From positions 1-64,000 of the forward strand of contig QHBM01000019.1 in the NCBI GenBank assembly GCA_003244145.1: a DNA stretch of 64,000 nt, given 5' to 3'. Of this stretch, positions 9,423-40,734 are shown one piece after another. A model generated the notes under the pieces. It made no database searches and had not been told where the DNA came from. It saw nothing but the letters and a program-made list of their open reading frames with translations. Both the position numbers and the translations under genes were made by a program. The stretch is from Chthoniobacterales bacterium (GTDB lineage: Bacteria > Verrucomicrobiota > Verrucomicrobiia > Chthoniobacterales > UBA10450). Numbering within the stretch: the stretch's first letter is position 1; the number at the start of each line of letters is the position of its first letter.

Positions 9423-10935
9423 CGCTCAGGTTTTGAAATGGCAGAACAGCGATGCTCTTTTCGGGAATAGCCGGTTCCATAGCTCTCTTATCTTCCGCGG
9501 AAGTTAAATCGATGGGCCGGGCTGATTCTTCCAAGATTTGCGCGAAGCGTGGATCGCCGCGCACATCATCCCAATCAGCACTCAGCTTTAACGATCCGAC
9601 CGTCGGGCCGTTCGGGAGCTTGACCACCGCGGCTAATTGCTCGATAGCCAAATCTTTCTCGCCGGCCCAGGCGTAAATTTGGGCAAGCGAAGTTTCAAAG
9701 TCGGCGCCGGTCGACGCATCCCGCGAGATGGGCTCCTTGGCTACAGCTTCGCGACCTTCCCGAATCGCGTCTTCCTTTCGTCCGAGCGCAGCGTCGGTGA
9801 GACCCATCCAGATGAGCGGCTCGGCATCATCCGGTCGTTTAATCAGAGTTTGTTCCAGGATTTGGCGCGCTTGCGCAAAGAAGGCGCGCGCTTTCTCTTG
9901 TTCGCCCTGGGCGCGCGCCATGAATCCATAGAGAAATGGAATTGGAACTACGTAACCTTCCGGAGCCAATTTTTTGGCCGCGTCGATCACGCGCTCAGCT
10001 TCGTCCCAATCGCGATCCAGAAAGGCAACCTGAAACCGAATCATTGAAGTATGGCCGCCCGGATTGTAGCCGCGCGGAAGCGACTCAATGATCTCCCGGC
10101 AGGTTTTCGTATCACCGAGCGCATAGGCAACGCCAAATTTATCGTCGAGAAAACCGAGCTTCTCTTCTGGAAAGGCGGCCAATCCATTCTCCACCAAGCG
10201 CTCGCTGTCCGAGTAACGTCGCAGTGCCTTGTAGGTATTGATCAGGTCGTGCAGGACATCTGGGTTGCGCGGATCGTGTTCCAGCGCTCGCTCCAGTTCT
10301 GTGAGCGACTCCTTCCATCGGCCTTGTCGCCTATCGATCGCGGCGCTCCAGATAAGAACGTCGGAGTTATTGGGCAGCATCCGGGTGGCCACCGTGAGCG
10401 CGCTACGCGCCTTTTCAAAATCGCGAATGCGATAATAATAACCCGCCTCAGCCAGTCGGACTTCCGCCAGGTCTGGACGCAGTCGCATAGCTGTCTGGAC
10501 CGCGTTTTCCGCTTTGGCGTGACGCGCCGGTGAGTGATCAAAATATCGATAAAGAGTAAGCTCAACCGAGCTTAGGAGACAGTAAGCCCGAACAAAATTT
10601 GGGTCCCGCTGAATAGCTTTGTCCAAGAATCCCTCAGCTTCCAGTTCACCCTCTTTGCCTACCCTGTATTGCTCGGCCCAGGCTTTCCCGCGCAGATACA
10701 AATCGTAAGCTTCCACATTGTTTGTGGTCCGTTCCGCGATAGCCATCTTCTCTCGCGGCGAAAGACTTACTTTGAGTTGGAGCACAATTTTTTCCGCCAG
10801 CTCCGTCTGCATCGCGAAGACATCGGCGATGTCGCGATCATAATTCTCGGCCCAGACGTGCGCATTCGTGCGCGTATCAATGAGCTGCACGTTCATGTGA
10901 ATGCGAGATCCGATTTTCTGCACAGCAGTTTGCAA
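9355..10935 (-). CDS. TPR-repeat regulator, N-terminally truncated and circularly permuted
   Basis: A 526-residue frame beginning inside a known domain: 'MNVQLIDTRTNAHVWAENYD' is normally preceded by 'VLEGSVQ' and an N-terminal 'IAVLPF' segment, and often by a DNA-binding or kinase domain. Here the only possible start is a TTG at 10935, and a stop codon lies at 10960-10962. TPR repeats follow over about residues 60-430. The usual end of such proteins is seen at 'DPRFAQILEESARPIDL'. The frame then runs on without a stop into 'IPEKSIAVLPFQNLSDD', the N-terminal part of another copy. Either two tandem paralogues have been truncated at the outer ends, or the assembly is at fault. Unlikely to be an intact gene. 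Confidence 0.6.
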   Translation of the reverse strand: MQTAVQKIGSRIHMNVQLIDTRTNAHVWAENYDRDIADVFAMQTELAEKIVLQLKVSLSPREKMAIAERTTNNVEAYDLYLRGKAWAEQYRVGKEGELEAEGFLDKAIQRDPNFVRAYCLLSSVELTLYRYFDHSPARHAKAENAVQTAMRLRPDLAEVRLAEAGYYYRIRDFEKARSALTVATRMLPNNSDVLIWSAAIDRRQGRWKESLTELERALEHDPRNPDVLHDLINTYKALRRYSDSERLVENGLAAFPEEKLGFLDDKFGVAYALGDTKTCREIIESLPRGYNPGGHTSMIRFQVAFLDRDWDEAERVIDAAKKLAPEGYVVPIPFLYGFMARAQGEQEKARAFFAQARQILEQTLIKRPDDAEPLIWMGLTDAALGRKEDAIREGREAVAKEPISRDASTGADFETSLAQIYAWAGEKDLAIEQLAAVVKLPNGPTVGSLKLSADWDDVRGDPRFAQILEESARPIDLTSAEDKRAMEPAIPEKSIAVLPFQNLSDDKANSFFADGVQDEILADLRS

Positions 10936-10941
10936 AGGTAA
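10930..10941. other. Joint between two truncated, head-to-head genes
   Basis: Similarity of the minus-strand TPR gene to its family stops at about 10930. On the plus strand the secreted-protein frame is recognisable from about 10935 onward but has no ATG, GTG or TTG codon between the upstream stop at 10881 and the GTG at 11040. Both genes lack their 5' ends at the same point, which marks a deletion, inversion or assembly breakpoint. Confidence 0.6.
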
Positions 10942-11039
10942 CCTTCTCCGTCGTCCCCTTTACCGTCGTCCAGACCGCGGACGGCGGATATCTAGTTGGC
11001 GCGAGGGGAAGCGCTAACGGTCATAACGGTTCGAAGATC

Positions 11040-14000
11040 GTGCTGCTCAAGCTGACGCCTCAGGGGAACCTCGACCGGGCGTATGCGTTCGGCGGAGCAG
11101 GAGACGAGGCTCACGGTGGAATTACCAACTCTATGACATCGGCGGTTGCGACTGTGGACGGTGGCTTCGCCTTCGCCACGGAGACAACTTCCTACACAGG
11201 CGATAGCACGGGCGCACCGGATATGTGGATAGGGAAGGCCGACAAGCTCGGCCGCATCGCCAACTTTCAGGATGTGATGCAGGACGTCACGGCTGAAATC
11301 GCATTCGGCGACGGTGATAGCACTCAGCCTCCCGCTGTGAATGGGTTTAGTGGTGCAGCACCTTTTGCGGTAGATCCCGCTCAACCACTCTGTGCTGCTG
11401 TGGTTCCGCAAAGCCTCGACAGCGTGGACGCGGTCGGCACCGTCAGGATTCAGGCCGACGCGCCATTCCCGCAGCCACCACCTCCGCCACACGGTGGTGT
11501 CGGTGGCACGGACTTCACGGTTAATGGAGCTCACACCGCAGTAACGCAAGACCTCCACGACACGGTAATTCGTTTCGCGGCCAAGCAGACCAGCCACGCC
11601 GCGGCGCTGCTGGTGCGTGTGCAGTCAACCCAGACGCCCAATCCCAATGATGCAAGTAATACGAGCTGGACCGATCTGCCGAACGGCCCGAACGCGGCCG
11701 GCGGCGGTTTCATGACCTATGACGCCTCGACGCAGCAATATGTGCTGAACGCGACTAACTACCCGCTGCAGAACGGCACTTACTTCCGCGCGATCGCCGT
11801 GGCGGCCGGTTACCCCGATAGCATAGCGAACGTGGTTGGGCCTTTCAATCTCGCCAGTAATACTCCGCATCTCGGGCCGACGATCCTTTACATTTCCAGG
11901 AACGGCCCGGTCGCTAACATCCGTTTCGGAGTCACGGAGACTACGATCCCGTCTGGCGTCGCCGTGCGGATTCAGGCGACTACAACTCCGGCGACCGAAG
12001 CGAGCTGGACTGACATAGCTAACGGAAACTTGACTGCCGACCCCAAGGCGCTCAATCAGTTTTATCTTGGCCTCGATGACTATCCTGCCGGAGAAGGAGT
12101 CTTCTTCCGCGCCGTCGCCAAGGCTTCGGGATTTGTCGATAGCTTGTCGCAGGAGATAGGTCCCATCACTTTCATCCTCGATCCGGCGGCAACAGTAGCG
12201 ATCACGATCACCGTTCCTGGCGGTAGCGCCTCCGGCAGCGGCCTGACAATCGACAACCCTGTCGTGGTATCATCGCGCTCCTTTAACGTGACCGCGACCG
12301 CACTGAGCGGCCGCTCTATCAAACGCCTCGCCCTCAAATACGCCGCCGACGTTCTCCAATCTTTTAACGGCGCGGCCGAGAGCGGAAACACGGTGCAATA
12401 TACGACTAACATACCAGGCGATCACTTGATCGAAGCGGTCGCGACAGATGATCTCGGGGTCATCGGTGACGCGCCACCGCTCCATCTCCGAGTAGCTCCG
12501 CAAGCGCCAGGCCTCACTTACACCTTAGTGCAGCCGGGCGATTGGAGTAACGCGGCGAACTGGCGCGATCCGCAAGGCAAGAATGGCGTTCCCGGACCGA
12601 ACGACTTCGCCGTGCTCAGCGGAAATAGTGTCTCGTTAGCTACGGATGTTATAGTCAATGCCGTCTCCCTGAATGGTGGCACGATCAGCGGGCCAGGTGC
12701 GCTTACTGTGACCGGCTTCTGCACCATCGCCGCGGGGCAAGTAAAGAACGACCTCACGATCGCAGCCGGCGCTACGTGCGAGCTACTCAACGACGCCGAT
12801 GTCGGAATGGGTGGGCGCTTGACGAATAATGGCAGGTTAAAGGTGCACGGCAAGGGTGGCATCACAGGCATACCTAACAACAGTAACGCAAAGGCTCAAA
12901 GCGCGAGCACAAGCCCTAACGGGTTCTTTGACGGCCTGGTCGCCTTCGTTAAGAACGTCGGCGATATGATCTTTCATCGGCCCGCGGGCGGACGGAAGGG
13001 CAGTGGATCAGCGCCCGCGCCTCCTCCTAATCCGCCTCCCGCGCCGGAAGTGCGACAGGTGATCGTTGTAGCCAGTGAAAGCTCGGGTCGGATCATTGCC
13101 GACAACAGCGACGGGCTCATCGCGCAGGGCGGCGGTAATCTCGTTGCGGCCGGCGGCGGTAATGTTGTCTCTCACGATGGGGGAAGCCTGATCGGCCAGG
13201 ATGGCGGCGGGCTCATCGCGCAGGGCGGCGGTAACATTGTTGCGCAGGGTGGCGGTAATGTTGTTTCTAACGATGGGGCAAGCCTGATTGGCCAGGATGG
13301 CGGGGGAATCGTGGCGACGGGTGGCGGCAACCTGGTCGGAAACTCCGGCGGCACTTTCAAGATCAACTCTGCTTCGGTAGCTAGCACCGCGACGCTTCAA
13401 GCGGCTACTGCGCCATCTGGCTTTACGCAGTCCGGCGGCGAGCTGAACTTAAGCCAAATTACGGTCATTGGCCCTTTCAATCTCAACGGTGGCGTGCTTA
13501 GCGGCTCGGGACTTATCTTGGGCGACCTAACGAATAATGGCGGCTACATCTCGCCCGGACATTCGGCAGGCATCATGGCGGTCACCGGCAACTTCACTCA
13601 AGGGGCTAACGGCACGTTGATTGTGGAGAATGGCGGCCCGTATCCGAGCCAGTTCGATCAGCTGCAGGTGGGCGGAGCGGCATCGCTTGGCGGAAACCTG
13701 GATGTGAAGCTTATTAACGGCTACACGCCTGATCCAGCGGATACATTTAGTCCGTTGGGTTATAGCTCGGCGACAGGTTCCTTTGCGTCGGTTAGCGGGA
13801 ACGCGCAGGCGACGGTGAACGCCAGCGGCCTGCTTACCTCGGTCGATCCGGCAAAGCCTAACCCAAAAACGGGCCAGCCGTTGAATATCGCCACGCGACT
13901 TGCCATTCAAAGTGGCGACAACGTGCTCATCGCCGGCTTCATCGTGACCGGACCAAGCGGTTCGACCAAGAAGGTGCTGATCCGCGGCCTCGGTCCTTCT

Positions 14001-14636
14001 CTCGCCGGCCTTGGCGTGCCGGGCACAATTTCCGATCCTTTGCTCGAATTGCATAACCCGGATGGGAGTGTTGTCATCAACGATAATTGGCAACAAGGCG
14101 ACACCACCCAGATACCGCCCGGCTTCGCGCCGAGTGACCCGCGAGAGTCAGTAGTGGTGGCTACCATCGGGCCGGGGAATTACACCGCCATCTTGAAAGG
14201 CGCTCACGGAGAAACCGGCGTAGGTCTGGCCGAGGTTTACGATCTTGACTCGGCCTCACTGGCGCAATTGGGCAATATTGCCACGCGCGGCTTTGTTAAT
14301 ACCGGAGACAACGTCTTGATCGGTGGTTTCATTATCGGCGGCACGGAACCGGCGAAAATGGTCGTCCGCGCGATCGCTCCCTCGCTCGTCTCCATCTTGC
14401 CCGGTGTATTAAAGGCCACCACCTTGGAATTGCATGACGCTAACGGGAGCGTGATCAGCAATGAAGGCTGGCGCAGTACCCAGGAGAGCGAAATCCTCGC
14501 GACGGCGCTTCAACCCGGCAACGATAACGAAGCCGCGATCCTCGCGACGCTCGTTCCTGGTAACTACACCGCGATCGTGCGCGGAAAGAATAACACCACC
14601 GGCATCGCGGTCGTCGAAGCTTACAATCTGCAATAG
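11040..14636 (+). CDS. Giant secreted/surface octapeptide-repeat protein, 5'-truncated
   Basis: At least 1198 residues; the GTG at 11040 is only the first available start. The codons before it ('TADGGYLVGARGSANGHNGS') are clearly part of the protein, in the style of delta-60-type repeats, so the signal peptide is missing. In order: a delta-60-like repeat region, two beta domains beginning 'GGTDFTVNG', an Ig-like section, a 'WSNAANWRDPQG' beta-strand domain, a conserved helix 'FDGLVAFVKNVGDMIFHRP', a proline-rich linker, about ten GG(S/N/G)(L/I)(I/V)xx(D/G) octapeptides (about residues 690-773), an autotransporter-type 'SPGHSAG...YDQLQV'-like section, and the duplicated C-terminal module. It is paralogous to the gene at 21298-25038. 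Role unknown; adhesion or matrix is likely. Confidence 0.8.
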   Translation: MLLKLTPQGNLDRAYAFGGAGDEAHGGITNSMTSAVATVDGGFAFATETTSYTGDSTGAPDMWIGKADKLGRIANFQDVMQDVTAEIAFGDGDSTQPPAVNGFSGAAPFAVDPAQPLCAAVVPQSLDSVDAVGTVRIQADAPFPQPPPPPHGGVGGTDFTVNGAHTAVTQDLHDTVIRFAAKQTSHAAALLVRVQSTQTPNPNDASNTSWTDLPNGPNAAGGGFMTYDASTQQYVLNATNYPLQNGTYFRAIAVAAGYPDSIANVVGPFNLASNTPHLGPTILYISRNGPVANIRFGVTETTIPSGVAVRIQATTTPATEASWTDIANGNLTADPKALNQFYLGLDDYPAGEGVFFRAVAKASGFVDSLSQEIGPITFILDPAATVAITITVPGGSASGSGLTIDNPVVVSSRSFNVTATALSGRSIKRLALKYAADVLQSFNGAAESGNTVQYTTNIPGDHLIEAVATDDLGVIGDAPPLHLRVAPQAPGLTYTLVQPGDWSNAANWRDPQGKNGVPGPNDFAVLSGNSVSLATDVIVNAVSLNGGTISGPGALTVTGFCTIAAGQVKNDLTIAAGATCELLNDADVGMGGRLTNNGRLKVHGKGGITGIPNNSNAKAQSASTSPNGFFDGLVAFVKNVGDMIFHRPAGGRKGSGSAPAPPPNPPPAPEVRQVIVVASESSGRIIADNSDGLIAQGGGNLVAAGGGNVVSHDGGSLIGQDGGGLIAQGGGNIVAQGGGNVVSNDGASLIGQDGGGIVATGGGNLVGNSGGTFKINSASVASTATLQAATAPSGFTQSGGELNLSQITVIGPFNLNGGVLSGSGLILGDLTNNGGYISPGHSAGIMAVTGNFTQGANGTLIVENGGPYPSQFDQLQVGGAASLGGNLDVKLINGYTPDPADTFSPLGYSSATGSFASVSGNAQATVNASGLLTSVDPAKPNPKTGQPLNIATRLAIQSGDNVLIAGFIVTGPSGSTKKVLIRGLGPSLAGLGVPGTISDPLLELHNPDGSVVINDNWQQGDTTQIPPGFAPSDPRESVVVATIGPGNYTAILKGAHGETGVGLAEVYDLDSASLAQLGNIATRGFVNTGDNVLIGGFIIGGTEPAKMVVRAIAPSLVSILPGVLKATTLELHDANGSVISNEGWRSTQESEILATALQPGNDNEAAILATLVPGNYTAIVRGKNNTTGIAVVEAYNLQ
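13110..13358 (+). repeat. In-frame 24-bp tandem repeats encoding octapeptides (about 10 units)
   Basis: Successive units read GGNLVAAG, GGNVVSHD, GGSLIGQD, GGGLIAQG, GGNIVAQG, GGNVVSND, GASLIGQD, GGGIVATG, GGNLVGNS. The period is exactly 8 residues (24 bases) with a hydrophobic pair at positions 4-5 and Asn/Asp/Gly at the turn. This suggests a tight beta-solenoid. Confidence 0.9.
13881..14636 (+). repeat. Duplicated 756-bp 3' segment, copy 1 (C-terminal module pair)
   Basis: From 'LNIATRL' to the stop codon this segment has the same length as 24283-25038 with no gaps, and long runs of identical bases. It encodes two tandem modules, each with 'GDNVLI(A/G)GFI', 'GPSL', 'LELH', 'W' and 'PGNYTAI'. 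The DNA likeness exceeds that of the rest of the two genes, which suggests recent duplication or gene conversion. Confidence 0.85.
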
Positions 14637-21180: not shown

Positions 21181-21297
21181 GAGGGCAGCCTAGGTGAGGC
21201 GACGGGTGGTGTCGACAGGCTGAATTTTTTCTGAAAATTGTTTGAGCCGTTTTAACCCGATTCGTTGCGAGAAGTAGTAAAGACCAAGTGTTCACCT
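21181..21297. promoter_or_regulatory. Divergent promoter region between sigma gene and giant secreted-protein gene
   Basis: This 117-base gap is the only space for promoters of both the ECF sigma gene (minus) and the secreted-protein gene (plus). It is AT-rich in the middle (around 21226-21253, 'AATTTTTTCTGAAAATTG'). I see no confident sigma-70 hexamer pair, so the promoters may be of ECF type; that is inference. Confidence 0.35.
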
Positions 21298-24200
21298 ATG
21301 AAATATCATCGCTTATTTAATTTACCCATTCTCCTGGCTTGCATCTGCGCCATCGTCAGCAGGTCAGCCGCGCAAACCGGTAGCATACCGGTGCCGGGTA
21401 GCGCCAACCCGTGGCTGGCCGACGCCGCCACAGCCGCTGGCGGTGACGCCGCTCCGGGCCAATCACCGGTTTTGGTGCAGTTGGTTGATTTTAACGTCGG
21501 CGATGAAATCACCTTTTCGGCCACAGGATCGGTCCAGTATGGCGGCGGTACTCCTACCGATCCGCCGGATGGAGATAGCGGCACGTTCCGCAGTCTTTTC
21601 CATTTATTCGACTCGACGAATGGGGGACCGGAAAACGGGATCGCTGGCCTGAATGCGCCGGCGAATTCGCTTGTCGGTGTTTTTCTCAGGAGCAGCGCTC
21701 CCGTTCCGGGCGGTTCTCCTGCTCCGTTCTTTAATTTCGCGCCGGGTGGCAACGTCCCGGGCAACATCGATTACACGAGTCTTCAGCCCACCATCGCTCA
21801 ACCATTTTTCATCGGCGACGGCCGGACCGCATCGGGCATCCCGCAGCGAGTGAACGTGCCTGCCGGGGCCACGCGTTTATTTCTCGGCACGATGGATGGA
21901 AGCGGCTGGTTCAACAACAGCGGATCATTCAGCGTTACTATCACGCTGGCCTCACATCCCCCAGTTGCGCCGGCGCACGGCGGTCTTTCGGCGACGGTCT
22001 TTACGGTGAACGGAAGCAGCTCACCTTCGGCGAATGTTGCCGACACAGCTTTGCGTTTCGCCGCGCAGCAAACTGGAACGCCCGCTGGATTGATCGTGCG
22101 CGTGCAGGTCAACACCGTGCCGAATAACAACGCGAACGACTGGGTTGACCTCAACAACGGCAGCAAAGGCTACATGACTCTCGACAAAGGCACGCAGCAG
22201 TTTGTCTTGAGCTCGACCAATTATGGGCTCGCGAACGGACTGTACTTCCGAGCGCTCTCCACCGCGGATGGTTATCCTCCCAGCGCTTCAAACATCGTGG
22301 GACCTCTTGATCTGACCGCCGGCCAGTCTCACCTCGGTACGACGACGCTCTACGTCGCGACCAATGGCCCCGGCCAGGAGATGAAGTTCCGGGCCCAGGT
22401 CGGAACGGACCAGGCTGGAATCGGCCTCAGCATCCAGGCAACGACCTCTCCACATGACGAAGCGAGCTGGACGGATTTGAACGACGGCAACTCGGGCGGC
22501 ATGCATCCGTTTGCTGATGCCAAACAGTTCTATCTCGACACGACGAAATACCCGGCGGGTGACGCTGTTTACTTCCGCGCCGTCGCGACGGCCCCGGGAT
22601 TCCTGAAAAGCCTCTCGAACATCATCGGCGTTTCGCCAGTGGTTGTCGGCGCGGCGCCTGAGGTGAACGCATTCCCCTCGACCCTCGACCAACTGCAGCC
22701 CGGCAGCGGATCGGGACTTACTCCGAATGATCCGTTCATCCTTCTGCTCGGCTCGCTGAAATTCACGGCGCAAGCATCGAGCCGCGAAGGCAGGGCAATC
22801 AACAAACTGGGGCTAATCTACGATGGCTCGACACTCGGCGGGGACAGAAGCGGCGACAAGGCCACGCTCGATTACCAGACCAACGTGCCCGGCGATCACA
22901 CGCTCAAGGCATTCGCCACCGACGATCGCGGCATCACCGGATATGCCGAGCCTGTTTACATCCGCATCGCTCCGCCCGGCGGGAAAGTTTTTACGATGAG
23001 CAGCTTCGGGAATTGGAATGATGCCAATAACTGGCGCGACGCCTTGGGCAACAATGGCGTGCCCGGCGCGAACGATTTCGCGATTGTCGGCGCATCGAAT
23101 GTTTCGATCACACAAAGCGTGAACGCCTACGCTGTCTCGCTCATTGGCGGTTCCATCAACGGGGCTGGCGGCGGGTTGACGGTGACCGGTTCCTTCCAAA
23201 TCGCTGGAGGTCAGCTCAAGAACTTGAACACGACGATCACAGATAGTGGGACGCTCTCCCTGGTCGGCGACGGCAACGTGCCGATGAGCGGTTCGTTGAT
23301 CAACTACGGCACTTTCAAGCTGACTGGCCGCGGTGGTATTGTTCCGGTTCCCGTCGGCGCAGAGGCTGTGCGGAGCGCCGGAGCGCCGGGGATTGATTCG
23401 ACCGGAATTTTTGACGGCTTCCTGACCGCGATCCAAAACTTCGGAAATTGGATCATTCATCGGCCGAGCACCCCGCCCAAACCAAAGCCGATCCCTCCGA
23501 CTCCACCGCCCGTGGAACTGCCGCGACTAATCGTTGCCAGCACTTTTGAAAACAAAGGAAAGTTGATCACCAATGATGGCGGTAGCCTCATCACGAACGA
23601 TGGTGGGAGTCTCATCACAAACGACGGTGGCAGCATAATCGGTAACGATGGCGCGAGTCTCATCAGTCAGGATGGCGGCAGCATCGTCGCCTCGGGCGGC
23701 GGTAACATCGTCGCTAGCGGTGCTGGTAATCTCATCGGTAACGACGGCGCCAGCATCGTCGCGCAGGGCGGCGGCAACTTTACAATCCGCAGCGGCGACG
23801 GCGTCAACGCGGCGACGGCTGGTTCGGGTTTCGTGCAAACGGGCGGCGAAACTGATCTCAGCCACATGCTGATCAGCGGAGCGGTCTCGATCGAGGGCGG
23901 CACGCTCACCGGCTCGGGAATTATCGTGGGCAATGTAACGAACAATAGCTTCATCTCGCCGGGACATTCCGCGGGAGCTATCTCGATCCTGGGCAATTAT
24001 ACGCAAAGAACTCAAGGCACATTGATCGTGGAGAACGGCGGCGCAGGTCCGCGCCAGTATGATCGACTTCAAGTGAGCGGCACTGCCAGCCTCGGCGGCA
24101 AGCTCGACGTGCGTGACATTAATGGCTACACGCCCGACCCAGCCGATACCTTTAGTCCGCTCGGCTTTAGCTCGGCCACCGGCTCACTCACCACCAGCTC

Positions 24201-25038
24201 GAACGGCCAAATCACATTGACTGCGAACGGGGCCCTCGCTTCGGTCGATCCCACCAAACCGGCGCCCTCCACCGGCCAACCGCTTAACATCGCAACGCGA
24301 CTCGCCATTCAAAGTGGCGACAATGTTCTCATCGCTGGCTTCATCGTCACTGGACCAAGCGGTTCGACCAAGAAGGTGCTGATCCGCGGGCTGGGTCCCT
24401 CTCTCGCCGGCCTTGGCGTGCCGGGCACGATTTCCGATCCTCTGCTCGAGTTGCATAAGCCGGATGGAAGCGTTGTGATCAACGATGACTGGCAGCAAGG
24501 CGACACCAGCCAAATACCGTCCGGCTTCGCGCCGAGCGACCCGCGAGAGTCAGTCGTGGTGGCTACACTAGGGCCGGGGAATTACACCGCGATCTTGAAA
24601 GGCGCGCACGGAGAAACCGGCGTGGGTCTCGCGGAAGTGTATGATCTCGATTCCGCGTCAGCGGCGCAGTTGGGCAACATCGCCACCCGCGGCTTGGTGC
24701 AGACCGGCGACAATGTGTTGATCGGCGGCTTCATTATCGGCGGCACGGAACCGGCGAAAGTGGTCGTGCGCGCGATTGCTCCCTCGCTCGCCGCCATTTT
24801 GCCAGGCGTATTACAGGCCACCACACTCGAATTGCACGACTCGAACGGCAGCGTGATCAGCAATGAAGGCTGGCGCAGTACCCAGGAGAGCGAACTCCTC
24901 GCGACGCAGCTTCAGCCAGCCAACGATAACGAAGCCGCGATCCTCGCGACGCTCGTTCCTGGAAACTACACCGCCATCGTGCGCGGAAAAAATAACACGA
25001 CCGGTATCGCGGTGGTGGAAGCGTACAATTTACAGTAA
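21298..25038 (+). CDS. Giant secreted/surface octapeptide-repeat protein
   Basis: A 1246-residue protein starting at ATG 21298 with a signal peptide (about residues 1-26, 'LPILLACICAIVSRSAAQ'). Next comes a domain with 'SANPWLAD' and 'GDEITFSATGSVQYGGG', resembling PA-IL/LecA-type sugar-binding lectins (tentative). Then two 'FTVNGSS' beta domains, an Ig-like part, 'NWNDANNWRDALG', the helix 'FDGFLTAIQNFGNWIIHRP', a proline-rich linker, about nine octapeptides (about residues 754-828), a 'SPGHSAGAISILGNYTQ' autotransporter-like section and the duplicated C-terminal module. It is paralogous to the truncated protein at 11040-14636, over almost the full length. It is divergent from the ECF sigma gene. 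Adhesion or extracellular matrix is a likely role; no outer-membrane barrel is seen. Confidence 0.87.
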   Translation: MKYHRLFNLPILLACICAIVSRSAAQTGSIPVPGSANPWLADAATAAGGDAAPGQSPVLVQLVDFNVGDEITFSATGSVQYGGGTPTDPPDGDSGTFRSLFHLFDSTNGGPENGIAGLNAPANSLVGVFLRSSAPVPGGSPAPFFNFAPGGNVPGNIDYTSLQPTIAQPFFIGDGRTASGIPQRVNVPAGATRLFLGTMDGSGWFNNSGSFSVTITLASHPPVAPAHGGLSATVFTVNGSSSPSANVADTALRFAAQQTGTPAGLIVRVQVNTVPNNNANDWVDLNNGSKGYMTLDKGTQQFVLSSTNYGLANGLYFRALSTADGYPPSASNIVGPLDLTAGQSHLGTTTLYVATNGPGQEMKFRAQVGTDQAGIGLSIQATTSPHDEASWTDLNDGNSGGMHPFADAKQFYLDTTKYPAGDAVYFRAVATAPGFLKSLSNIIGVSPVVVGAAPEVNAFPSTLDQLQPGSGSGLTPNDPFILLLGSLKFTAQASSREGRAINKLGLIYDGSTLGGDRSGDKATLDYQTNVPGDHTLKAFATDDRGITGYAEPVYIRIAPPGGKVFTMSSFGNWNDANNWRDALGNNGVPGANDFAIVGASNVSITQSVNAYAVSLIGGSINGAGGGLTVTGSFQIAGGQLKNLNTTITDSGTLSLVGDGNVPMSGSLINYGTFKLTGRGGIVPVPVGAEAVRSAGAPGIDSTGIFDGFLTAIQNFGNWIIHRPSTPPKPKPIPPTPPPVELPRLIVASTFENKGKLITNDGGSLITNDGGSLITNDGGSIIGNDGASLISQDGGSIVASGGGNIVASGAGNLIGNDGASIVAQGGGNFTIRSGDGVNAATAGSGFVQTGGETDLSHMLISGAVSIEGGTLTGSGIIVGNVTNNSFISPGHSAGAISILGNYTQRTQGTLIVENGGAGPRQYDRLQVSGTASLGGKLDVRDINGYTPDPADTFSPLGFSSATGSLTTSSNGQITLTANGALASVDPTKPAPSTGQPLNIATRLAIQSGDNVLIAGFIVTGPSGSTKKVLIRGLGPSLAGLGVPGTISDPLLELHKPDGSVVINDDWQQGDTSQIPSGFAPSDPRESVVVATLGPGNYTAILKGAHGETGVGLAEVYDLDSASAAQLGNIATRGLVQTGDNVLIGGFIIGGTEPAKVVVRAIAPSLAAILPGVLQATTLELHDSNGSVISNEGWRSTQESELLATQLQPANDNEAAILATLVPGNYTAIVRGKNNTTGIAVVEAYNLQ
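23557..23781 (+). repeat. In-frame 24-bp tandem repeats encoding octapeptides (about 9 units)
   Basis: Units read GGSLITND, GGSLITND, GGSIIGND, GASLISQD, GGSIVASG, GGNIVASG, AGNLIGND, GASIVAQG. The first units are nearly identical as DNA, so slippage that adds or removes 24 bases would keep the frame. The same consensus is seen at 13110-13358. Confidence 0.9.
24283..25038 (+). repeat. Duplicated 756-bp 3' segment, copy 2 (C-terminal module pair)
   Basis: Ungapped counterpart of 13881-14636; see there. A more divergent version of the same module pair forms most of the protein encoded at 57066-58001. Confidence 0.85.
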
Positions 25039-29919: not shown

Positions 29920-30627
29920 ATGGCCAAGCAAGTAAAACTCACAGCGGAACGGCGGACGGCCACAGGGCGTTCCGCGGTGCGAAAACTCAAGGCGTCCGGC
30001 TCGGTGCCCGCGAATATTTACGGCGCGAAGGACAAGCCGGAGAACTTGCAGGTATCCAAGCGCGACATCAACGCGCTCCTCAGCCACGCGGCGGGTGAAA
30101 ATATTTTGGTGGAACTGGAAATCGCCGGCGAGAGCAAGAATCGCCTCGCCCTCGTGCAGGAAGTCCAGCACGCGCCGGTGGGTGGCGCCATTTTGCATAT
30201 CGATTTCCACGCGGTTTCGATGGATGAAGTCATCGAAGCGGACGTCCCGCTTGAACCGATCGGCATCGCCAACGGCGTAAAAAATATGGGCGGCCTTCTC
30301 GAACAAAGCCTGCGCACCCTCGCGATCGAATGTCTGCCCCGCGACCTGCCTGATGTCATCACAGTGGATGTCTCCGCGCTCGACATCGGTAACGCCATTC
30401 ACGTGCGGGAAATTCAATTACCCACGGGTGTGACGACGCGAGTCCAGCCCGACCTCACCGCCTTCTCGGTCCTGGCACCGACGGTGGAAGAAGAGCCGGT
30501 GGTTGCTGCGGCAGAAGCGCCGACGGGACCTGAAGTGATCCGCGAGAAGAAGGAAGAACCGGAAGGGGCGGCTGCGCCCGGAGCTAAGGACAAGGCAGCT
30601 CCGAAAGAAAAAGAGCAGAAGAAGTGA
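29920..30627 (+). CDS. rplY: 50S ribosomal protein L25/general stress protein Ctc
   Basis: A 235-residue long-form (CTC) L25. The N-terminal half binds 5S rRNA ('KLTAERRTATGRSAVRKLKA', 'GSVPANIYG'), and 'LVQEVQHAPVGGAILHIDFH' marks the core. The second half is the extra beta domain ('VDVSALDIGNAIHVREIQLP'). The final 50 residues are an acidic/lysine-rich disordered tail. It lies 9 bases after prs, the usual prs-ctc-pth order. A heptamer repeat separates it from pth. Its incorporation into the large subunit is known family biology. Confidence 0.94.
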   Translation: MAKQVKLTAERRTATGRSAVRKLKASGSVPANIYGAKDKPENLQVSKRDINALLSHAAGENILVELEIAGESKNRLALVQEVQHAPVGGAILHIDFHAVSMDEVIEADVPLEPIGIANGVKNMGGLLEQSLRTLAIECLPRDLPDVITVDVSALDIGNAIHVREIQLPTGVTTRVQPDLTAFSVLAPTVEEEPVVAAAEAPTGPEVIREKKEEPEGAAAPGAKDKAAPKEKEQKK

Positions 30628-30631
30628 TCCA

Positions 30632-30659
30632 TTTTGGATTTTAGATTTTGGATTTTGGA
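30632..30659. repeat. Four tandem heptamers between rplY and pth
   Basis: TTTTGGA, TTTTAGA, TTTTGGA, TTTTGGA follow without gaps. They resemble short tandemly repeated repetitive (STRR) elements described in other bacteria. The repeat occupies the leader of pth, 10 bases before its start codon. Confidence 0.85.
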
Positions 30660-30669
30660 TTGAACGGAT

Positions 30670-39727: not shown

Positions 39728-40561
39728 CTATCGAGCAGGAGTGGGGGAAGGCGTAGGCAAACGACCGGGAGCACGGGAACGAACGGGCGCGGGAGAACGA
39801 ACAGGCGCCGGGGAATGAGAACGAACAGGAACGGGAGCGGGAGACCGGATCGGGGCAGGAACAGTAGAGCGAACGGGAGCGAGACGAACCGGAGCAGGCG
39901 CAGTAGATCGAACGAGAATAGGCGCAGGAGGAATCGCGGCAGGCGCGGGAACCAGAGGGGGAACTGTAGCGGAGTGCATCACGGCTTCCTCCTTTACGAC
40001 AACGGGAGTGCCAACTGGCGCTTCGTTGAAAAAGGTTTCCGCCATTCCCTGGGGCACACGGATGCAACCGTGGGACGCCGCGTAGGGCGGGACGTAACCC
40101 TGATGCATCGCGTAGCCGCCGCGGAAAAACATCGCGTACGGCATCCGTGCGCCGTCGTAATGCGAGCCCGGCGGTTTGCGGTCCTTGCGCTGGTCGATAT
40201 TCGATTTCACGACGTTGCCGAAATCGTCCACGTAGTCGCCGAAAACAGTGGAGACATGAGTAGCGTCCTTCGACAACACTGTGTAGTGGCCGGGTGGCGT
40301 CCCGAAGCCGGCTTTGCCGGTCGAAACGTTGGCTTCGCCGACGAGATGTTTGCCCTTGTAGAAATAGGCGTGCTGTTCCGAAATGCTGACGACGATTTTA
40401 GGCGAACCGGGAACGCCGTCGCCATTCCAATAACCAGGCACCGGAGTGGGAGCGGGCACCACCGTCGTGGGCTTGGCCGGCGTTTCCATCTCCGCGCAAC
40501 TGGCGAACATCGCGACCACGGCGAGAGCGAGCGCGCTTCGAAACAGGGAAAAGCTGGTCAT
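39728..40561 (-). CDS. L,D-transpeptidase lipoprotein with Pro/Ala/Arg-rich tail
   Basis: About 277 residues. A signal peptide with a lipobox-like end ('ALAVVAMFASC') suggests a lipid-anchored envelope protein. The YkuD domain (about residues 55-190) has the active-site motif 'YAASHGCIRVP' and the conserved 'YAMHQG'. It would form 3-3 cross-links in peptidoglycan or attach proteins to it. The last 75 residues repeat (V/I)RSPAPVP-like blocks, basic and proline-rich, probably spanning or binding the wall. ATG 40561 is taken; upstream in-frame codons add residues before the hydrophobic core. It is divergent from the small lipoprotein gene. Confidence 0.88.
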   Translation of the reverse strand: MTSFSLFRSALALAVVAMFASCAEMETPAKPTTVVPAPTPVPGYWNGDGVPGSPKIVVSISEQHAYFYKGKHLVGEANVSTGKAGFGTPPGHYTVLSKDATHVSTVFGDYVDDFGNVVKSNIDQRKDRKPPGSHYDGARMPYAMFFRGGYAMHQGYVPPYAASHGCIRVPQGMAETFFNEAPVGTPVVVKEEAVMHSATVPPLVPAPAAIPPAPILVRSTAPAPVRLAPVRSTVPAPIRSPAPVPVRSHSPAPVRSPAPVRSRAPGRLPTPSPTPAR

Positions 40562-40734
40562 GAAGATGCGCACAGTAATACCTCCCGTTGCCTCTTCAAT
40601 ACGAAACATTCAGGTGGCATTTGCAGGGATCCTTCGGCCGGTCCTTCTGGAAAATGCAGAGATCGCATTCGGTTATTCTTGCCCAGCGACGTAGTTCCTG
40701 ATTCGCTCACCGGCGGAGGAACCCATTGTCCATT

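What the first reader, a model, noticed from the sequence alone, without database searches (positions are those of the whole stretch)
13110..13358. Octapeptide GG(S/N/G)(L/I)(I/V)xx(D/G) tandem repeat in giant secreted proteins
About ten units here and nine at 23557-23781, with exact 8-residue spacing, a hydrophobic pair and an Asn/Asp/Gly-rich turn. It resembles, but is not, the nonapeptide RTX repeat (GGxGxDxLx). The period suggests a very narrow beta-solenoid or a metal-binding beta-roll. I do not know a named family for it.
Basis: partly seen in the sequence, partly recalled or inferred. Interest (0 to 1): 0.65.

Follow-up and report, generated by a model that had tools for sequence, protein, structure and literature searches.

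The report
Undescribed eight-residue protein repeat family
Two large, probably surface-exposed proteins of this bacterium contain a real eight-amino-acid repeat that no family database I could search describes, that recurs in secreted proteins of at least seven bacterial phyla, and whose turns follow a strict two-state sequence rule suggesting stacked beta-strands.

Summary
Both genes carry ten in-phase octads: 13107-13346 (P0001) and 23554-23793 (P0002). Period-8 identity exceeds all 20,000 shuffles and third codon positions vary most, so the peptide is what is constrained. No Pfam or NCBIfam model covers the octad. Hosts include ricin-lectin, DUF4214, Kelch and fn3 proteins.

The most informative new fact is a coupled turn. 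Residues i and i+3 are Asp…Ser/Thr/Gly (144 of 153 Asp octads) or Gly…Asn (125 of 142 Gly octads); Asp…Asn occurs once in 443 unique octads (at least 36 in every shuffle). Many arrays lack any acidic residue, so calcium binding cannot be the general principle.

AlphaFold2 gave no fold for the array in context (pLDDT 23-34). In register it gave one short strand per octad (mean pLDDT 65), but AF2 overpredicts solenoids for repeats. A narrow beta-prism or solenoid is likely, not shown. The role (spacer or self-associating module) is inferred.

The parts
13107..13346 (+). Octad array 1, ten units, residues 690-769 of P0001
   Evidence: Direct translation and phase analysis; TRF 96-nt period
23554..23793 (+). 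Octad array 2, ten units, residues 764-843 of P0002
   Evidence: Direct translation and phase analysis; TRF 24- and 48-nt periods
11040..14636 (+). Host ORF P0001 (1198 aa from a GTG; the frame opens at about 10884); N-terminus looks truncated, no signal peptide seen
   Evidence: no significant Pfam or NCBIfam match
21265..25038 (+). Host ORF P0002 (1257 aa as listed; a likely start is the internal ATG of MKYHRLFNL...), signal-peptide-like N-terminus, paralogue of P0001
   Evidence: no significant Pfam or NCBIfam match
22978..23334 (+). N-terminal flank of array 2: beta-helix-like, G8-like region
   Evidence: AF2 pLDDT mostly 79-96 over its first 120 residues, all strand; weak G8 match in one relative (E 0.025); weak Foldseek resemblance to antigen 43 (E 0.03)
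23827..24264 (+). C-terminal flank of array 2: beta-helix-like region with conserved GGVLSGSG...ISPGHSAG motif
   Evidence: Alignment A1/A2; AF2 pLDDT mostly 55-83, all strand
13881..14636 (+). Duplicated ~120-aa C-terminal domain of P0001
   Evidence: Internal alignment of the two halves; 93.6% identical to the same region of P0002
24283..25038 (+). Duplicated ~120-aa C-terminal domain of P0002

Best explanation
The octad is a portable repeat module of extracellular bacterial proteins. Each unit is one short beta-strand (positions 4-6: Leu/Ile/Val, Ile/Val, small residue) followed by a Gly-rich tight turn. The turn has two interchangeable chemistries, Asp-Gly-Gly/Ala-Ser/Thr/Gly or Gly-Gly/Ala-Gly/Ala-Asn, so that normally exactly one polar side chain (Asp at i or Asn at i+3) is available to cap the turn. 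Consecutive strands stack into a narrow beta-prism or solenoid, and arrays grow and shrink by tandem duplication of whole octads. In the window's proteins the module sits between two beta-helix-like regions of a surface or secreted protein, where it most likely acts as a stiff or self-associating spacer. Shown: the repeat, its phase, protein-level constraint, the coupling, the distribution. Inferred: the stacked fold (about 0.65) and the spacer or self-association role (about 0.4).
For: Phase and constraint. Asp(i)-Asn(i+3) exclusion: 1 of 443 unique octads against at least 36 in each of 5000 shuffles, repeated in separate phyla; a local i/i+3 rule is what a defined turn would give and is not expected of a random linker. 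AF2 in-register model: a 3-residue strand at positions 4-6 of eight successive octads. Nearest shapes are three-sided beta-helices, MinC C-domain Z 5.1-6.1 and bactofilin Z 4.6-4.8. Solved precedent for an octapeptide making one face of a triangular beta-prism: T4 gp5 (PMC3004832), which a GGGNIVAQ consensus finds weakly by sequence (E 0.003 and 0.18-0.2). Flanks are all-strand and conserved. Signal-peptide-like or lipoprotein-like N-termini are common among hosts.
Against: AF2 gives pLDDT 23-34 for the array in its own protein, and mean 65 with three of five models at 45-50 when in register. AF2 is known to fold more than 40% of random perfect repeats into beta-solenoids (PMC11795689), so that model is weak evidence. 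No higher-order period marks a two- or three-octad coil: identity falls steadily with lag. Hydrophobic residues at both 4 and 5 imply that one of them faces out of a narrow solenoid. No experiment bears on function.
Confidence: 0.5

Rival explanations
1. The array is a triple-stranded intertwined beta-helix like the T4 gp5 / VgrG spike: three chains wind round one axis and each octad forms one face, so a single chain does not fold alone.
For: Same period; best non-lectin PDB sequence matches to the GGGNIVAQ consensus are gp5-type spikes; low AF2 confidence for a single chain is what a trimer would give; no higher-order period.
Against: Of the gp5 consensus (Gly a, Asn/Asp b, Val g, polar h; PMC3004832) only a and h fit; b is Gly/Ala and g is Ala/Ser/Gly/Thr here. 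PF06715 has no match in the genome at E 10 although it does find control genomes. The host flanks look like monomeric autotransporter-type beta-helices.
Confidence: 0.2
2. The array is a flexible, mostly disordered Gly-rich linker that lengthens by slippage; the regular octad only reflects duplication.
For: pLDDT 23-34 in context; high Gly content; a Pro-rich linker precedes both arrays of the window; unit number varies among paralogues.
Against: Two invariant-type hydrophobic positions per octad, excess third-position divergence and the strict i/i+3 coupling repeated in separate phyla are not needed for a linker.
Confidence: 0.2
3. Calcium-binding beta-roll of RTX type with a shortened unit.
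For: Gly-rich turns with Asp; secreted context; some hosts carry DUF4214, which from my own knowledge is also found in RTX-type proteins.
Against: Period 8, not 9; no Pfam RTX match in P0001 or P0002 at E 10. Acid-free octads are common (0 of 24 unique octads in Pseudomonadota carry Asp/Glu; whole arrays in L060, L057, L116 have none) and interchange with Asp octads inside one array.
Confidence: 0.05
4. A DNA-level element (minisatellite or G-rich repeat) whose translation is incidental.
For: TRF periods of 24, 48 and 96 nt; some pattern hits in other genomes are clearly frame artefacts.
Against: Third codon positions diverge most; same peptide consensus with very different codons across phyla; always in an open frame of a long gene in the relatives.
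Confidence: 0.03

Closest known systems
T4 gp5 C-terminal octapeptide beta-helix (Pfam PF06715 Gp5_C)
   Same: Eight-residue period, Gly at the turn, beta-strand within the octad, several units in a row; weak sequence match to the GGGNIVAQ consensus.
   Different: gp5 has Asn/Asp at b and Val at g (PMC3004832); here Gly/Ala and a small residue. No PF06715 match. Phage spike, not a secreted bacterial protein.
Ice-nucleation protein repeats (PF00818)
   Same: From own knowledge: octapeptides paired into a 16-residue beta-solenoid coil in a bacterial surface protein.
   Different: No PF00818 match in the genome at E 10 (though the control genomes were not over the cut-off either); no Thr-x-Thr motif; no 16- or 48-residue higher-order period.
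RTX nonapeptide repeats
   Same: Gly-rich turns, tandem arrays in secreted proteins.
   Different: Nine residues and a fixed Asp; here eight residues and often no acidic residue.
Curli / Fap functional amyloid repeats
   Same: Short strand-turn repeats with Gly/Asn turns in secreted proteins (own knowledge); FapC appears in the Foldseek list of the array model, not significantly (E 0.96).
   Different: Longer units (about 22 residues or more, own knowledge); no Pfam match for the octad hosts.
MinC C-domain and bactofilin beta-helices
   Same: Closest shapes to the in-register AF2 model (Z 4.6-6.1, rmsd 2.0-3.1).
   Different: Cytoplasmic proteins without octad sequence; Z is too low to claim a shared fold.

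Membership tests
Gp5_C octapeptide repeat (PF06715) | Tandem period of eight residues | tested here: met
   Lag-8 peak
Gp5_C octapeptide repeat (PF06715) | Match to the curated profile | tested here: not met
   No match in the genome at E 10; control genomes do match
Gp5_C octapeptide repeat (PF06715) | Asn/Asp at position b and Val at position g (PMC3004832) | tested here: not met
   Gly/Ala and Ala/Ser/Gly/Thr at the aligned positions
Gp5_C octapeptide repeat (PF06715) | Homotrimeric intertwined prism | not testable with these tools
   Only single-chain prediction is offered
RTX (calcium-binding nonapeptide) | Period of nine with GGxGxDxUx | tested here: not met
   Period is eight; no Pfam match at E 10
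RTX (calcium-binding nonapeptide) | Conserved Asp ligand in every repeat | tested here: not met
   Many acid-free octads and arrays
Ice-nucleation repeat (PF00818) | Match to the curated profile | tested here: inconclusive
   No match at E 10 in the genome, but no control genome was above the cut-off
Autotransporter passenger (type Va) | Right-handed beta-helix passenger | tested here: inconclusive
   Flanks all-strand, N-flank confident; Foldseek to antigen 43 only E 0.03
Autotransporter passenger (type Va) | C-terminal beta-barrel translocator | tested here: not met
   The C-terminus is a duplicated ~120-aa domain with no Pfam match

The most novel reading that the evidence does not exclude
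The octad is a so far undescribed, cross-phylum beta-strand module with a built-in two-state turn code (Asp at i or Asn at i+3, not both). It works as a homotypic glue: proteins of different function in one cell carry compatible uncapped arrays, which stack with one another outside the cell to build a surface matrix. The cyanobacterial MAG RYN_339, with arrays on 22 contigs, would be an extreme user.
Probability: 0.2. Interest if true: 0.75.

Novelty: new variant of a known kind. Interest (0 to 1): 0.5.

Why it matters
A repeat spread over several phyla and appended to lectins, DUF4214, Kelch, fn3 and beta-helix proteins, with no family model, is currently invisible to annotation. The turn rule is simple enough to test by mutation and could be of use in repeat-protein design. 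It also gives an independent handle, beside structure prediction, on whether such short repeats really fold, a point on which AF2 alone is unreliable.

Tried and rejected
Viral contigs: 16 pattern hits, but nearly all are one GGGGA[LP]VP-type frame in related phage regions and one is low-complexity; they lack the octad turn code and were rejected as frame artefacts. 26 of 118 genome-contig hits lacked three successive coded turns and were set aside; some of these (L085, L090, L149) are probably real octads with other turns. Plasmid and phage tblastn of an array: no match, but the low-complexity filter may hide it. PHROGs: nothing on the window proteins. Text search for the repeat strings found only unrelated plant papers; octapeptide plus beta-solenoid found only prion papers. 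PDB sequence hits to mannose-binding lectins and Putidacin L1 look like chance GN/QG matches. Coil size from higher-order repeat lag: no signal. Foldseek of the array model against PDB and BFVD: nothing significant. Gene neighbourhood gave no functional lead.

Full report
CHECK. P0001 (window 11040-14636, +) and P0002 (21265-25038, +) each hold ten in-phase units, at 13107-13346 and 23554-23793. Lag-8 identity is 32/75 and 36/70, above the maximum of 20,000 shuffles (24 and 20); the next-best lag is 16. Differences between units are most frequent at third codon positions (0.65 and 0.49 per site against 0.28-0.35 at the first two), so the peptide is under constraint rather than the DNA. TRF finds 24-, 48- and 96-nt periods; the 96-nt copy in array 1 is a duplication of four octads.

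HOST PROTEINS. P0002 begins with a signal-peptide-like stretch. P0001 does not: its frame opens at about 10884 in a short piece of propeller-like sequence, whereas relatives have a long beta-propeller-like N-terminal region, in some cases preceded by a signal peptide. It is probably truncated. Judged by eye, both then have two Fn3-like repeats; after these come a beta-helix-like region with a weak G8 resemblance, a Pro-rich linker, the octads, another beta-helix-like region, and a duplicated ~120-residue C-terminal domain. The last 251 residues are 93.6% identical between the two genes, against 47% in the body before the array; of 92 DNA differences there, 72 are at third positions, consistent with purifying selection on a recently shared segment. 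Neither protein matches any Pfam or NCBIfam model significantly. The neighbouring genes (ECF sigma factors, TPR protein, protein kinase, adenosine deaminase, RlmN-like protein) suggest no function.

DISTRIBUTION. A third array lies elsewhere in the same genome. Of 58 related genomes (the window's own included in the tally) 12 match, some with several genes on one contig (G004 contig 17, G002 contig 10). In a wider draw from the phylum 7 of 289 match, most weakly. Reading them in frame, 92 have three or more successive octads with the turns described below; one or two of these, such as L054, may still be frame artefacts. They come from Verrucomicrobiota, Bacteroidota (Hymenobacter, Chitinophaga, Niastella, Pontibacter, Pedobacter and others), Acidobacteriota, Pseudomonadota, Actinomycetota, Gemmatimonadota, single MAGs labelled Planctomycetota and Chloroflexi, and a MAG labelled Cyanobacteria (RYN_339) with matches on 22 contigs; the same pattern read backwards gives none in the ten genomes tested. 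MAG labels can be wrong, and the Chloroflexi one looks suspicious because its array and flank resemble those of this family. Arrays sit C-terminal to ricin-type lectins, after DUF4214 repeats, in a Kelch lipoprotein-like protein, and in an fn3 protein. Several proteins end exactly in GGGN or GGAN.

THE TURN RULE. Written turn-first, each unit is x-G-[GA]-x-[LIV]-[IV]-x-x. In 443 unique octads from 131 loci the residues at i and i+3 are strongly coupled: Asp at i goes with Ser, Thr or Gly at i+3 in 144 of 153 tabulated octads, Gly at i with Asn at i+3 in 125 of 142, and Asp...Asn occurs once (minimum in 5000 shuffles 36). The rule appears separately in the cyanobacterial MAG (32 Asp-type, 31 Asn-type, no Asp...Asn), Acidobacteriota (11, 10, 0), Actinomycetota (11, 12, 0) and Verrucomicrobiota (99, 63, 0). 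Unique octads are not fully independent, because arrays grow by duplication. My reading is that one polar side chain caps each turn and can be supplied from either end; this is inference. Octads with no acidic residue are common, which argues against calcium as a general ligand.

STRUCTURE. Job 1 (P0002 residues 572-1005, 22 sequences) folds the N-flank confidently and the C-flank moderately, and leaves the array at pLDDT 23-34. The ragged repeat in that alignment may contribute. Job 2 (array alone, 32 arrays in register) gives a three-residue strand at positions 4-6 of eight successive octads, mean pLDDT 64.8, the other four models 45-61. Its nearest shapes are MinC C-domains (Z 5.1-6.1) and bactofilins (Z 4.6-4.8), which are three-sided beta-helices (own knowledge); such Z values can mean only a common arrangement. 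AF2 is known to predict beta-solenoids for more than 40% of random perfect repeats (PMC11795689), so this model is weak support. Identity between octads falls steadily with distance (0.66, 0.63, 0.60, 0.57), so no two- or three-octad coil can be read from sequence.

PRECEDENT. T4 gp5 has a solved octapeptide repeat forming an intertwined three-chain prism (PMC3004832). A GGGNIVAQ consensus finds gp5-type spikes weakly (best E 0.003). The consensus differs at two of four stated positions and PF06715 does not match, so I do not file the octad there; but the idea that one octad makes one face of a narrow prism, alone or in a trimer, is the best mechanical model.

VERDICT. A real, unmodelled repeat family with a clean sequence rule and broad distribution; fold likely beta, not shown; function inferred.

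Noticed in passing
13881-14636 and 24283-25038: Duplicated ~120-aa domain (NIATR...GDNVLI.GFI..G...K...R...PSL...LELH...GSV) at both C-termini, also at the ends of the relatives' proteins, with no Pfam or NCBIfam match.
   Followed up: partly
10884-11474: P0001's N-terminus is a short propeller-like remnant opposite a TPR gene on the other strand; the gene looks 5'-truncated or rearranged.
   Followed up: partly
L047:7530-7814 and L085:3496-3783: About 95-aa proteins of a Bacteroidia MAG and Psychroserpens that are almost nothing but octads of another type (GAGIIPKD / GARIIPKE), with no visible signal peptide.
   Followed up: no
L048, L053, L056, L075, L094, L098, L102, L118, L119: Octad arrays at or very near the extreme C-terminus of signal-peptide-bearing lectin or DUF4214 proteins, most ending in GGGN or GGAN before the stop; possibly a sorting or attachment tail.
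   Followed up: no
39760-39914: Overlapping 18-, 24- and 39-nt tandem repeats (GAACGGGAGC-type) near the low-coordinate end of the antisense ORF 39728-40609.
   Followed up: no
30631-30661: ATTTTGG heptamer repeated 4.4 times, directly after the stop of ORF 29920-30627.
   Followed up: no
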